NCBI GenBank assembly: GCA_017513445.1
Contig: JAFXFS010000018.1
Coordinates: forward strand, 62,001 to 126,000
Source: Bacteroidales bacterium
GTDB taxonomy: Bacteria; Bacteroidota; Bacteroidia; Bacteroidales; UBA932
Direction: 5' to 3'
DNA length: 64,000 bases
The translations under genes and the position numbers were made by a program. Shown piece after piece: positions 5,886 through 61,803 of this stretch (position 1 is its first letter; the number at the start of each line of letters is the position of its first letter). Under the pieces are notes generated by a model. It ran no database searches. It was not told where the DNA came from and saw only the letters and a list, made by a program, of their open reading frames with translations.

Positions 5886-7571
5886 TTACCAATAAAAATC
5901 ACTCTCAATTCTACTACTATTTCCTCGAGAATCCTCTGCTGTAACTACGATTTTATGGTTTTTACCCCTCTTGAATCTATTAGGATCCAATACAATTTCA
6001 ATCCTACCTCTCCTTGTATAACTCAATGCCCATTTGCCGTCAATCTCAACTCGATAGCTCCTGATGCCTGAAAGGTTATCTCTCATTCTGGCATAGATAA
6101 CAGATCTTGATGTAACTTTAGCACTCTCCTTGAATGAGAAACTTAGTTGCGGTGCAATAGTATCAATAGCAACATAGTATGTTCCAAAGGAAGATACAGA
6201 TGCCTGTACTCCACCATTTACCCATTTGCCACCAACTGCGCTCTCTACACCATTACTATTCAATTTCATAATCAATGCTTTTGATTGCAAAGAATCAGGC
6301 ACATCAGCTTTTATATGAATAGTTGCAGCTTTATGCATTGGCATTAGGTAATCTCCTATACTCCAAATAGATGAATAGATGTTATTATTAGGATCAAAGC
6401 CTCTTCTCTCCTCCACATTTAATAAAATAGATCTATAAAGAGAGGCAGCAGGGATAGCAAAAGAGAGACTATCAGCTCTATATACATTTGGTAAATTCCA
6501 GAACATAGGGACTCTTCCATCATTTGAGACACCTTTTGGCTGGACTTTATTGCCCCTTTTTACTCTATAATTGATTGCAGAGAGATTATTCTGTCCATCT
6601 CTCACCTCTACTCTCAACTTATGAACAAGTGTATCTTCTAAGATAATCAATCCGCTATTTTTCGATTCAATATGACTTCTTAGAGCATTTCCCGGTTCCA
6701 CATAACTTTTTACCATATCCATTCCTGAATAGTAGCTCTCACCATACTCTATAAGACTTTTAATATAAAGTCCCTTATAAGATGGCATTTCACCCACCTT
6801 AAAATCGAAGATTGTCTCTCCATCAAGTAAGACACGATAATGTTCTACAGCCAATCTACCAGGTGTTCCTGCCTGTTTATCCACAGCATCAATACAGATG
6901 TAAGACTTCTCTGGAAGTTCAATTACTCTGCTCAATGATGTAGGAGCATCAAACCCTAACAAGAATGATGTTTCAGGTACCCCTGTTGTATCTACATAGG
7001 AGTAGAACTTAATTCTTTGAAAAATTGGAGGTACATTATCTTTTATATCGTAATAACCCTCATTTACAAAATCAAATGGAGTTCCATTCTCGTCCCTAAC
7101 CTCCAAATGAAGGTGAGGAGCTACTGAAGAGCCGGTATTCCCTACCTTTCCAATTACATCTCCCTTTTTTACAGGAAATGTACTCTGATTAAAATAGAGA
7201 TTAACTGAGAATGATTCATCTTCATACTGTTTTTTACGCACCAATTTCTCAATCTCGTCGGTAAAGGCTGACAAGTGGCCATATACAGCACACGTACCAT
7301 CAAGATGTGTCACATATACACCTTTGCCATAACCACTTGGACTCATTGATATTCTTGAAATATATCCATCCTTAATAGAATGAATAGGGTCACCTATCCT
7401 TCCACCGACTCTAAAATCATACCCTGCGTGAAAATGATTACCACGTAATTCTCCGTAGGTGCCTGAAAATGATACGGGTAAATCTAACGGCAAACGCACC
7501 TCTTGAGCTGACAACCCAAAAAGTGCGATTACCTGTACAAATAATATTGAGTAAATTCTCTTAATCTTCAT
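5886..7571 (-). CDS. M23 family metallopeptidase (LytM domain), exported
   Basis: The protein is about 561 aa, taking ATG 7571; an in-frame TTG at 7580 three codons upstream is less likely. A signal peptide (MKIKRIYSILFVQVIALFGLSAQ) leads into an N-terminal LytM/M23 domain. It has the HxxxD zinc motif (NHFHAGYDFRVGG), a YGHLS loop and the terminal HxH (HLHLEVRD). The remaining two thirds is a beta-rich extension ending in Ig-like sequence (KVTSRSVIYARMRDNLSGI). Such periplasmic or outer-membrane-facing enzymes cleave peptidoglycan cross-bridges or regulate amidases. It starts 5 bp after dnaJ and probably belongs to the grpE-dnaJ transcript. Confidence 0.9.
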   Translation of the reverse strand: MKIKRIYSILFVQVIALFGLSAQEVRLPLDLPVSFSGTYGELRGNHFHAGYDFRVGGRIGDPIHSIKDGYISRISMSPSGYGKGVYVTHLDGTCAVYGHLSAFTDEIEKLVRKKQYEDESFSVNLYFNQSTFPVKKGDVIGKVGNTGSSVAPHLHLEVRDENGTPFDFVNEGYYDIKDNVPPIFQRIKFYSYVDTTGVPETSFLLGFDAPTSLSRVIELPEKSYICIDAVDKQAGTPGRLAVEHYRVLLDGETIFDFKVGEMPSYKGLYIKSLIEYGESYYSGMDMVKSYVEPGNALRSHIESKNSGLIILEDTLVHKLRVEVRDGQNNLSAINYRVKRGNKVQPKGVSNDGRVPMFWNLPNVYRADSLSFAIPAASLYRSILLNVEERRGFDPNNNIYSSIWSIGDYLMPMHKAATIHIKADVPDSLQSKALIMKLNSNGVESAVGGKWVNGGVQASVSSFGTYYVAIDTIAPQLSFSFKESAKVTSRSVIYARMRDNLSGIRSYRVEIDGKWALSYTRRGRIEIVLDPNRFKRGKNHKIVVTAEDSRGNSSRIESDFYW

Positions 7572-18995: not shown

Positions 18996-19136
18996 AGATT
19001 GCCGCACTCCGTGCAGCAATGACGAAGTAGAGTAGATTGTCGGACTCCGTGCAGCAATGACGGAGTAGAGTAGATTGTCGGACTCCGTGCAGCAATGACG
19101 GAGTAGAGTAGATTGCCGGCTACGCCAGCAATGACG
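18996..19136. repeat. 38-bp tandem palindromic repeat, three full copies plus one variant
   Basis: Units start at 18996, 19034 and 19072 and are 38 bp each; units 2 and 3 are identical and unit 1 differs at a few sites. Each contains AGATTG...GCAATGACG around an imperfect inner stem (CGGACTCCGTGCAG). A fourth, shorter unit at 19110-19136 has a different inner stem (CCGGCTACGCCAG). The block fills most of the gap between dnaK and the convergent phosphoesterase gene; the rest of 18907-19219 shows nothing beyond the terminator. It belongs to the palindrome family seen at 46.6, 56.4, 57.4 and 61.5 kb. Confidence 0.9.
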
Positions 19137-56397: not shown

Positions 56398-56656
56398 ATT
56401 CTTGCGATGCACTCTTTTCAATCATTCCTGCGATGCACTCTTTTCAGTCATTCCCGAAATTGCTTCGGGAATCTGTTCCTTCCATCTGGCACACCCAATC
56501 CTTGCTAGAGTGCGTTCTGAGGCACATTACCCGATCCAGGTGGAAACACTCACCCTTCCATCTGGCACACCCAATAGATTGCCGGGCTGCGCCCAGCAAT
56601 GACGGAGGGAATCTGCGCACAGTAATGATGGAGGGAATCTGCGCACAGCAATGACG
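56398..56656. repeat. Palindromic repeat cluster (third)
   Basis: Two direct copies of about 25 bp (CATTCnTGCGATGCACTCTT) start at 56398 and 56423. A CATTCCCGAA / TTCGGGAATCTG element (56448-56475) follows. The spacer CCTTCCATCTGGCACACCCA occurs twice (56478 and 56553 region). Then comes AGATTGCCGGGC / GCCCAGCAATGACGG (56576-56604) and two shortened copies of its right half (GCGCACAGYAATGAYG). All belong to the dispersed family. Confidence 0.85.
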
Positions 56657-56666
56657 TGATGTAAAT

Positions 56667-56691
56667 AAAAAAAGCGAGACCGAAGTCCCGC
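56667..56691 (-). terminator. Strong minus-strand terminator
   Basis: On the minus strand GCGGGAC-TTCG-GTCTCGC is followed by a run of seven T (56667-56673). This UUCG-capped hairpin would end any leftward transcript crossing the acidic ORF and the two CRISPR-like repeats. Confidence 0.9.
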
Positions 56692-56856
56692 CTTAAGTGT
56701 TTTCACAACGGAATAATCTTTATTGTGAATAAACGAATAAAACTAAAGATGTTGTCTACAAATTAAAAATACAAAATTGAATGCAATTCACAACGAATTT
56801 AGATTTGATAAATTGGAAATTGAAGACGGTAGCTATGTTTTCTATCTCACTGAAAT

Positions 56857-57120
56857 TTAGAAGTGCATAACCCCGTTCTTATCAGTGCGGGGTTCTTCTT
56901 CGTCTTCAAGGTCTGAAACAGTCTTATACACCCATTCCCCGTCCGCACCTTTGTATCGTTCCATTCGGTAACCTGCGATACGCTCATTGGCGGGGTCAGA
57001 AGTAAACTCCAAGAAGATACGTTCTTTCTCCTCCTCGGGCAGTGCTTCCCATTCTGCTGCCTGTCGCTCGTTGCGGGCTTCAACTTCCGCCCAAATTCTT
57101 TCAAATTCTTGGTCTGTCAT
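56857..57120 (-). CDS. Small acidic protein of unknown function, foreign composition
   Basis: An 87-aa ORF starts at ATG 57120 (MTDQEFERIWAEVEARNERQ); an in-frame ATG at 57144 would add eight residues. The protein is helical at the start (Ala/Glu/Arg-rich, WEALPEEEKERIFLEF) and strongly acidic (about 25 Asp/Glu against about 12 Lys/Arg), with no signal or membrane segment. Codons such as CGC, CGA, CCC, GAG and CTG are far more frequent than in neighbouring genes, and GC content is visibly higher, so recent acquisition is likely. It sits between two CRISPR-like repeats, downstream of the promoter-like motif in the right copy. No family is recognised. Confidence 0.6.
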   Translation of the reverse strand: MTDQEFERIWAEVEARNERQAAEWEALPEEEKERIFLEFTSDPANERIAGYRMERYKGADGEWVYKTVSDLEDEEEPRTDKNGVMHF

Positions 57121-57169
57121 ACGCTTGCTGTTTTGATGTTGCAAAATTACGTTGATGTTGTCTACAAAT

Positions 57170-57200
57170 CAAAGATACAAAATTGAATGCAATTCACAAC
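57170..57200 (-). promoter_or_regulatory. Promoter embedded in the right CRISPR-like repeat
   Basis: On the minus strand the repeat starts GTTG, then 19 bp, then TATCTTTG (57170-57177). This is an exact fit to the TTG-N19-TAnnTTTG Bacteroidota promoter. Transcription would start in the last third of the repeat and run through the acidic ORF to the terminator at 56667. Confidence 0.6.
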
Positions 57201-57288: not shown

Positions 57289-57385
57289 TATTAATCCTCC
57301 TTATTTATTTTATAACAAAGTATTAATCGTTTAATTTATACTACATTGCAGGAAACTTTAGTACAGCAATGAGGTGAAAGAATAA

Positions 57386-57598
57386 CAGATTGCCGGGCTT
57401 CGCCCAGCAATGACGTTACAATATTAGTCATTCCCGAACTTGCTTCGGGAATCTGTTCCTCTTCGTCATTCCTCCGACGCAAGTCGCGGGAATCTATGTT
57501 CCATCTGGCACACCTAACAGATTGCCGGGCTGCGCCCAGCAATGACGGAGAGAATCTTCGCCCAGCAATGACGGAGGGAATCTGCGCCCAGCAATGAT
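57386..57598. repeat. Palindromic repeat cluster (fourth)
   Basis: Elements in order: AGATTGCCGGGC / GCCCAGCAATGACG (57387-57414), GTCATTCCCGAA / TTCGGGAATCTG (57427-57454), a third with arms TCATTCCTCCGACG / CGCGGGAATCT (57466-57494), CCATCTGGCACACC spacer, AGATTGCCGGGC / GCCCAGCAATGACGG (57519-57547) and two copies of CGCCCAGCAATGA. Same family as the cluster at 56.4 kb. The remaining part of 57289-57642 shows only AT-rich sequence. Confidence 0.85.
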
Positions 57599-57901
57599 GT
57601 ATTTTTTGCTGTTGAATATTGTTTATTAGTCGGCTCAATTCTTTACAAGAACATAGTCATATATACAGGGATATAATCCACACCATTCTCTCGGCGAAGT
57701 CTCATAAATCGTTCTAAATCTATTTTATTATAAAAGTGTTTATATAATTTGATATTAAATCCGCAAAAAAAGTACTGCTACTGACTGATTATCAAGTGAG
57801 TAATAATCGGGTATATATTTAGCTGTTGCACTCTTTTAAGAGTTACCAAAAAATTTATCAGTTGAATAAAGAGCGTTCGCAGTACCAAAAACCAAAAAAT
57901 T

Positions 57902-61448: not shown

Positions 61449-61803
61449 CCGTCATTGCTGGCGAAGCCACACTACCGTCATTACTGACTAAGCCACACTA
61501 CCGTCATTGCTGGCGAAGCCGGCAATCTGTTGAGCACACCATTGAAACAGATTCCCGAAACAAGTTCGGGAATGACGAAAATGTTGTCTCAAGTCGGGAA
61601 TGACAAAAATGTTGTCTCAAGTTCGGGAATGACAAAAATGTTGTCTCAAGTTCGGGAATGACGATATCGAAACGTCATTGCTGACTAAGCCACACTACTG
61701 TCATTGCTGGCGAAGCCGGCAATCTGTTGAGCACACCATTGAAACAGATTCCCGAAACAAGTTCGGGAATGACGAAAATGTTGTATCAAGTCGGAAATGA
61801 CGG
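61449..61803. repeat. Palindromic repeat cluster (fifth) with a 128-bp duplication
   Basis: Two direct copies of about 128 bp, 61477-61604 and 61674-61801, differ at about four positions. Each contains CGTCATTGCTGGCGAAGCC / GGCAATCTG and AGATTCCCGAA / TTCGGGAATGACG elements separated by TTGAGCACACCATTGAAAC. Between them are tandem copies of a 27-29-bp unit (ATGTTGTCTCAAGTTCGGG). The block fills the gap between tRNA-Lys and the receptor gene; nothing else was seen in 61438-61863. Confidence 0.9.

What the first reader, a model, noticed from the sequence alone, without database searches (positions are those of the whole stretch)
56857..57120. Acidic, foreign-composition 87-aa ORF inside the CRISPR-like repeats
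Seen: strongly acidic (about -13 net), GC-richer, with codon use unlike the neighbours. It is framed by a promoter-like repeat upstream and a UUCG terminator downstream. Inference: a recently acquired cassette gene. Small acidic proteins beside CRISPR loci can be anti-CRISPRs or phage-derived regulators, but nothing here proves that. It could equally be an orphan from a conjugative element.
Basis: partly seen in the sequence, partly recalled or inferred. Interest (0 to 1): 0.58.

Follow-up and report, generated by a model that had tools for sequence, protein, structure and literature searches.

The report
Phage immunity-gene candidate inside dead CRISPR
A small acidic protein gene that sits next to a toxin gene in bacteriophages has ended up, with the last few codons of that toxin, between two repeats of a dead CRISPR array in a gut-type bacterium, where a CRISPR repeat may supply a promoter for it; similar oversized phage pieces lie at the old end of several related arrays.

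Summary
The ORF is real and foreign: minus strand 57120-56857, 87 aa, net charge -13, GC 50% against 33-41% in neighbours. Its flanking repeats are true 47-nt type II-C CRISPR repeats, only two in the genome, followed by a tracrRNA tail whose nexus matches intact loci at 23 of 24 bases. Neither Cas9 nor Cas1 was found. The ORF therefore occupies a 359-nt 'spacer' (normally about 30 nt).

The insert is phage DNA. Relatives of the ORF in two IMG/VR phage contigs lie tail-to-tail with an ADP-ribosyltransferase toxin gene. The window insert carries that toxin's last 19-21 codons on the opposite strand, cut exactly at repeat R1. Small genes beside such toxins in Bacteroides prophages can be immunity genes (PMC11699363). 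Best reading: an orphan candidate immunity gene with a promoter completed by the repeat. The anti-CRISPR idea finds no support.

Oversized first intervals at the old end also occur in 3 of 38 other arrays, and all three hold or adjoin another phage gene family found beside such toxins. The immunity function is inferred, not shown.

The parts
56857..57120 (-). 87-aa acidic ORF, candidate orphan immunity gene of a phage ADP-ribosyltransferase toxin
   Evidence: relatives in phage contigs L144/L145 and in genomes G724, G549, G278.
56795..56860 (+). Last 21 codons plus stop of a phage ADP-ribosyltransferase toxin gene, cut exactly at repeat R1; its stop overlaps the ORF stop
   Evidence: RFDKLEIEDGSYVFYLTEI against L145 RFDKVEITKDGYVFYLTEI, 14 of 19 identical, E 5e-5 (against 5 proteins); L144 10 of 20, E 0.001.
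56795..57153 (-). 359-nt insert of phage DNA standing where a roughly 30-nt spacer would be
57154..57200 (-). CRISPR repeat R2 (47 nt), with internal promoter TTG-N19-TATCTTTG
   Evidence: Rfam CRISPR-DR49 sub-threshold.
57142..57149 (-). TAATTTTG (-7-like box) inside the insert, 20 nt after the TTTG of R2: hybrid phage/CRISPR promoter for the ORF
   Evidence: consensus TTTG-N19-21-TAnnTTTG is recalled, not from a call.
56748..56794 (-). CRISPR repeat R1 (47 nt), two substitutions from R2, weakening its promoter box (TATTTTTA)
56704..56730 (-). tracrRNA remnant: end of anti-repeat (ATTCACAA) and nexus, 23 of 24 bases identical to tracrRNAs beside Cas9
   Evidence: same core beside Cas9 in Prevotella, Persicobacter and Phocaeicola records.
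56667..56692 (-). UUCG-capped intrinsic terminator of the tracrRNA, now the likely 3' end of the ORF transcript

Best explanation
A type II-C CRISPR locus lost its cas genes, leaving two repeats joined to the tracrRNA tail. Between the repeats lies one 359-nt piece of phage DNA, ending inside a phage ADP-ribosyltransferase toxin gene and carrying the complete small gene that overlaps that toxin's stop codon. Repeat R2 gives the small gene a promoter (its own, or a hybrid with the phage -7 box), and the tracrRNA terminator ends the transcript. The 87-aa protein most likely acts, or once acted, as an immunity protein that binds and blocks the phage-borne ADP-ribosyltransferase, kept without its toxin. 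Shown here: the repeats, tracrRNA nexus, missing Cas9/Cas1, phage origin of the insert, and position of relatives beside the toxin. Inferred: transcription, translation, and the immunity function (I give that step about 0.5).
For: Two 47-nt repeats only, in the whole genome. tracrRNA nexus 23 of 24 and terminator. No Cas9 in own genome while 20 of 59 genomes searched exceed the cut-off. No Cas1 in own genome; the control rang in 9 of 14 genomes. ORF relatives in two IMG/VR phage contigs, each tail-to-tail with a protein having an ADP-ribosyltransferase domain above the Pfam cut-off. Toxin C-terminus encoded in the window insert with overlapping stops. In PMC11699363 (abstract, section 6 and passages read) a MuF-ADP-ribosyltransferase of a Bacteroides prophage has two neighbouring immunity genes, one small and non-enzymatic; that paper also speculates that small ORFs after other MuF toxins are immunity genes. 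In PMC5576092 (passages read) 89.4% of 191 MuF toxin genes are followed by an ORF under 150 aa. Parallel cases: outsized first intervals in L074, L076, L112 with the phrog_19606-like family in or beside them, which in Bacteroides phage Versailles lies between an ADP-ribosylglycohydrolase gene and a convergent large gene.
Against: Only two phage relatives were found, and three relatives (G549, G724, G278) lie in chromosomal places where no intact toxin gene was seen in the stretches read. The ORF's last 40 residues or so have no counterpart in relatives. It has no sequence similarity to the phrog_19606-like family (phmmer up to E 5), so it would be a different kind of immunity protein. The fold model is moderate (pLDDT 76, pTM 0.42) with no Foldseek match at E 0.001 or better. 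No expression data. The MuF label rests on a sub-threshold Pfam hit (E 0.058) and on gene context. Nothing shows that the gene is under selection.
Confidence: 0.58

Rival explanations
1. The insert is inert phage DNA in a decaying CRISPR remnant; the ORF is a passenger gene without present function.
For: cas genes gone; R1 and the tracrRNA nexus carry substitutions; in L076 the phage gene beside the array is broken by an in-frame stop; phage insert pieces end inside genes.
Against: The ORF is intact and complete, with a promoter box at consensus spacing from the repeat. In the window, L074 and L112 the small gene is complete while the flanking toxin or tail genes are cut (the L074 toxin end is a weak match and the L112 tail gene was named by eye).
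Confidence: 0.27
2. The ORF is an anti-CRISPR or phage regulator acting on type II-C Cas9.
For: Small, acidic, phage-derived, inside CRISPR repeats. Three Riemerella phage loci carry a tracrRNA-like element just upstream of a small gene plus a DNA-binding gene, so such links may exist elsewhere.
Against: No Cas9 or Cas1 in the genome. Relatives sit beside an ADP-ribosyltransferase toxin, with no Aca gene next to the ORF. No family match.
Confidence: 0.05
3. The functional product is the RNA: repeat R1 and the tracrRNA tail form a single-guide-like or decoy RNA, and the ORF is merely upstream.
For: Repeat directly followed by tracrRNA recurs in L088, L089 (same place as L079) and L090, in genomes without detected Cas1, and three repeats directly before tracrRNA in L116. 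The nexus cores of L088, L079/L089 and L090 are unmutated. The R1-tracrRNA strand folds better than shuffles (z -2.66).
Against: The anti-repeat in the window is reduced to about 9 bases; the minimum-free-energy fold pairs R1 with itself and the nexus flanks with each other, not R1 with the anti-repeat; no Cas9 to bind. In loci where both were found, tracrRNA lies downstream of the array on the same strand, so a deletion of the cas genes explains the fusion.
Confidence: 0.1

Closest known systems
Bxa / Bsi / BAH module of a Bacteroides stercoris prophage (PMC11699363; abstract, section 6 and passages read)
   Same: Phage ADP-ribosyltransferase toxin with small neighbouring genes, one of which binds and blocks it; Bacteroidales.
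   Different: The window has only the end of the toxin; no similarity of the 87-aa protein to the phrog_19606-like family that I take as Bsi-like (from a K-Y-x-E pattern at 86-89 of Versailles WAK79154, against the reported Bsi residues K89, Y90, E92). The Bsi sequence itself was not seen.
MuF polymorphic toxins of temperate phages (PMC5576092; passages read)
   Same: Small ORF directly beyond the toxin gene, in a portal-proximal phage block.
   Different: The small gene converges on the toxin (tail-to-tail) instead of following it on the same strand, and here it is separated from the phage.
Type II-C CRISPR loci of Bacteroidota with 47-bp repeats and about 30-bp spacers (PMC6008519, PMC5704556, PMC12080349; passages read)
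   Same: Repeat length and sequence type, promoter in the repeat, tracrRNA nexus, same-strand order array then tracrRNA.
   Different: 359-nt interval, two repeats only, no cas genes, array fused to tracrRNA.
Orphan immunity genes / polyimmunity loci (discussed in PMC11699363, passage read)
   Same: Immunity gene kept without its toxin.
   Different: Lodged inside a CRISPR array; immunity function unproved.

Membership tests
Immunity protein of a phage MuF/ADP-ribosyltransferase toxin | Gene adjacent to the toxin gene in phages | tested here: met
   2 of 2 phage relatives, plus the window's toxin end.
Immunity protein of a phage MuF/ADP-ribosyltransferase toxin | Small product (under 150 aa) without enzyme domain | tested here: met
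   87 aa; no Pfam, NCBIfam or PADLOC family at cut-off.
Immunity protein of a phage MuF/ADP-ribosyltransferase toxin | Binds and neutralises the toxin | not testable with these tools
   Needs co-expression and co-purification.
Immunity protein of a phage MuF/ADP-ribosyltransferase toxin | Toxin carries a MuF domain | tested here: inconclusive
   PF04233 sub-threshold (E 0.058) in L144, none in L145; the placing beside a portal gene is by eye in L145 and annotated only in Versailles.
phrog_19606-like (Bsi-like) family | Sequence similarity | tested here: not met
   Window ORF finds only itself in phmmer up to E 5 over 52 sequences.
Type II-C CRISPR array | 47-nt repeats of the family type | tested here: met
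Type II-C CRISPR array | Spacers near 30 nt | tested here: not met
   Single interval of 359 nt; other arrays mostly 29-31 nt.
Type II-C CRISPR array | cas9/cas1 present | tested here: not met
   (genome 99% complete, 19 contigs).
Type II-C CRISPR array | tracrRNA nexus and terminator | tested here: met
   23 of 24 core bases; UUCG terminator. Anti-repeat largely gone.
Anti-CRISPR (AcrIIC) | Similarity to an anti-CRISPR or an adjacent Aca regulator | tested here: not met
   No family hit; no regulator ORF beside it.
Anti-CRISPR (AcrIIC) | Inhibits Cas9 | not testable with these tools
   Needs an interference assay; no Cas9 in the genome.

The most novel reading that the evidence does not exclude
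The old (cas-distal) end of Bacteroidales II-C arrays is a reservoir of 'giant spacers': 0.35-1.2 kb phage pieces that carry whole toxin-immunity genes, expressed from the promoter that every II-C repeat holds. The array would then protect by making proteins against phage-borne toxins, in addition to or after loss of RNA-guided protection.
Probability: 0.15. Interest if true: 0.85.

Novelty: new variant of a known kind. Interest (0 to 1): 0.5.

Why it matters
It would be a case of a CRISPR array holding a complete, potentially expressed phage gene instead of a guide sequence, and of the same phage locus type (small genes beside an ADP-ribosyltransferase toxin) turning up in oversized intervals of several unrelated arrays. 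If general, it raises testable questions: can the adaptation machinery or recombination fix DNA pieces ten to forty times the spacer length, and do the repeat promoters turn them into genes? It also names a candidate inhibitor of a phage toxin class that in one studied case aids gut colonisation (PMC11699363, abstract).

Tried and rejected
Tried without yield: exact-peptide scans for the ORF in genome contigs and viral contigs (no relative); tblastn in phages and plasmids; PHROGs (best E 0.034); same-family genomes (19 of 398 at E 0.1, all but the own genome at E 0.0078 or worse; one of these, G278, later scored 5e-9 with a three-sequence profile); L025-type hits examined and dropped as an unrelated frame; Foldseek against PDB (nothing at E 0.001); solo repeat plus tracrRNA in viral contigs (0 matches). 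Cas9 search with PF18541 was uninformative because no control rang; replaced by TIGR01865.

Considered and rejected: that the ORF shares ancestry with the phrog_19606-like family because of a YKG stretch (no similarity); that the flanking GC-rich repeats are element ends (they recur elsewhere in the window); that the fused repeat-tracrRNA is unique to this genome (it recurs).

Limits of the survey: one search looked at 45 loci; 6 gave no array and one (L098) gave a non-CRISPR repeat, leaving 38 arrays, two pairs of which are from one genome each; 43 of 393 genomes matched but places were listed for only some of them, so the others were not read. The sensitive scan covered 28 arrays, the window included. 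The L106 interval holds an assembly gap and was dropped. The L112 'collapsed repeat' was seen by eye.

Full report
Observation. The window is G000:C2:62001-126000 of a 1.62-Mb, 19-contig, 99%-complete genome. The ORF runs on the minus strand from ATG 57120 to the stop at 56857 and encodes 87 aa. It has net charge -13, pI 4.4 and GC 49.6%, against 33-41% in ten neighbouring genes; its codon score is lower than all 131 neighbour windows. Length alone is marginal: P 0.055 for an ATG ORF of at least 87 aa in Markov resamplings of the insert.

The frame around it. Repeats R1 (56748-56794) and R2 (57154-57200) are 47 nt, same orientation, 96% identical. They are the only copies in the genome. They score as CRISPR repeats in Rfam below the gathering score. 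Arrays of same-family genomes have repeats of the same type with 29-30-nt spacers. After R1, on the same strand, comes CACAATAAAGATTATTCCGTTGTG and a UUCG terminator. The unmutated form of this 24-nt core stands beside Cas9 in the relatives' loci listed and in Prevotella nigrescens, Persicobacter psychrovividus and Phocaeicola massiliensis records, so it is the nexus of the II-C tracrRNA. The window copy matches 23 of 24; its anti-repeat is cut down to about 9 bases.

Loss of cas genes. In loci where both were found, the array lies upstream of the tracrRNA on the same strand (L127 was printed in reverse orientation), with cas genes between them in the loci I checked. The window arrangement follows if the cas genes were deleted. 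Cas9 is absent from the own genome while 20 of 59 genomes exceed the cut-off; Cas1 is absent too, with controls ringing in 9 of 14. The same repeat-to-tracrRNA fusion was found in three records of the 84,980-species collection by one exact pattern: UBA4073 (L088), RGIG2950 (L089, the same place as L079) and BRZ_FQ bin26 (L090), none with detected Cas1. L116 has three repeats directly before a tracrRNA, with no Cas9 or Cas1 in the 14 kb read.

What the insert is. Single-sequence searches found relatives of the N-terminal part at G724:C182 (E 1e-5) and G549:C9 (E 0.0026) among 393 genomes of the order (6 of 393 at E 0.02, the own genome included), and G278:C98 by a three-sequence profile (E 5e-9). 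An alignment of these found two IMG/VR phage contigs, L144 and L145, and no new clear genome among 282 (4 of 282 at E 0.01, two of them the known G000 and G549, two marginal). In both phage contigs the small gene (67 and 77 aa) ends next to the end of a convergent gene of 566 or 572 aa with an ADP-ribosyltransferase domain above the Pfam cut-off. The window insert, read on the plus strand from the first base after R1, encodes EFRFDKLEIEDGSYVFYLTEI and a stop; 14 of 19 residues match the L145 toxin's C-terminus (E 5e-5 against five proteins) and its stop overlaps the ORF's stop. So the 359 nt are best read as one contiguous phage piece: one whole small gene plus the last codons of the toxin gene, cut exactly at the repeat.

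Expression. R2 holds TTG-N19-TATCTTTG, and the insert holds TAATTTTG 20 nt after the TTTG of R2. Against the recalled Bacteroidetes consensus both are plausible promoters; the second is a hybrid in which the repeat supplies the -33 box. That II-C repeats carry promoters and that new spacers enter at the last repeat is stated in PMC12080349 (passages read); [quoted passage not shown] No transcript was seen here.

Function. In PMC11699363 (abstract, section 6 and passages read) the prophage toxin Bxa, a MuF-ADP-ribosyltransferase, is countered by BAH, a hydrolase, and Bsi, a small protein that binds it. PMC5576092 (passages read) reports small ORFs after 89.4% of 191 MuF toxin genes against 25.5% of 952 short MuF genes. 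The window protein is the small gene beside such a toxin, so immunity is the most likely role (about 0.5). The model shows three helices and a hairpin at moderate confidence and no PDB match.

Parallel cases. Of 38 arrays, three have an interval over 200 nt between good repeats: L074 (1232), L076 (610) and L112 (1162). Each is the first, cas-distal interval (for L074, whose short contig holds no cas gene, by analogy of orientation) of arrays with 11, 18 and 15 intervals; for random positions that is about 1 in 3000. Degenerate first repeats mark this end as the old one. A more sensitive scan of 28 arrays added degenerate repeats 412 (L074), 423 (L076), 594 (L109) and 319 nt (L126) further out. 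Contents: L074 holds a phrog_19606 gene (E 1e-17); L112 holds one such gene and a second, distant relative of it; the outer L076 interval holds a copy of that second type broken by an in-frame stop, and the 610-nt interval a phage virion morphogenesis gene running into the repeat. These hits were the only ones in the 52 sequences searched, window included (the loci sum to about 0.57 Mb). In L092, L093 and L094 the same family converges on large genes, with an ADP-ribosylglycohydrolase ORF upstream in L092 and L094 (the L092 hydrolase and the L092 transferase domain were tested, the rest read by eye). In phage Versailles the order is ADP-ribosylglycohydrolase, family member, convergent 869-aa protein whose C-terminus resembles the others by eye, then portal and terminase. 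The family member there has K-Y-A-E at 86-89, recalling the Bsi residues K89, Y90, E92; identity of the two families is inferred. L109's interval has a sub-threshold HicB-like ORF; L126 has no gene that I recognised. L074 begins with a possible toxin end (28 aa, E 0.003; E 0.09).

Against this reading. Two phage relatives are few; three chromosomal relatives show no intact toxin beside them in the stretches read; the C-terminal 40 residues or so are unmatched; expression and selection are untested; decay without function remains quite possible (0.27). The mechanism that put phage DNA between repeats is open: oversized acquisition, repair-linked insertion, or recombination with repeat-bearing DNA all fit.

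Novelty. Searches of the held library for long spacers, genes in arrays, orphan immunity genes with CRISPR arrays and captured genes (listings seen only) showed no report of this arrangement; that is a limited search. Small toxin-adjacent phage genes and decayed arrays are known kinds; their combination, recurring at the old end of arrays, is a new variant.

Noticed in passing
L082:1990-2530 (Riemerella phage RAP44), L083, L087: A tracrRNA-nexus-like element (4 mismatches to the 24-nt core) lies just upstream of a 113-aa phrog_18499 gene followed by a 60-aa HTH DNA-binding gene, an arrangement like an anti-CRISPR operon with a tracrRNA mimic.
   Followed up: partly
L088 (2253-3060 of the reverse strand), L089:4320-4450, L090, L116: CRISPR repeat(s) fused directly to an unmutated tracrRNA tail away from cas genes, in several Bacteroidales; could be orphan tracrRNA genes with repeat-borne promoters.
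   Followed up: partly
window 56446-56660, 57340-57600, also near 19014, 46622, 61450-61745: GC-rich dispersed intergenic repeats (ATTCCCGAA..TTCGGGAAT, GATTGCCGGGCTGCGCCCAGCAATGACG) bracket the CRISPR remnant on both sides in the same orientation.
   Followed up: partly
L021 (G278:C98): The ORF family's N-terminal motif is in frame upstream of an XseA-like protein (529-aa open frame; XseA named by eye), perhaps a mis-set start or a fusion.
   Followed up: no
L112, reverse strand 6570-6580: GTTGTGACAGC inside the 1162-nt interval looks like a repeat collapsed to its two ends, splitting it into about 0.79 and 0.36 kb.
   Followed up: no
L109, 594 nt before the first repeat (reverse strand): Degenerate repeat followed by a 136-aa ORF with a sub-threshold HicB-like antitoxin match inside the interval.
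   Followed up: no
L135 (G724:C182): The ORF relative lies beside what looks like a copy of the toxin's last residues (DRFVFYLSEI, by eye) on the same strand, and remains of another phage small gene, between a GNAT-like gene and a CorA-like gene (named by eye).
   Followed up: no
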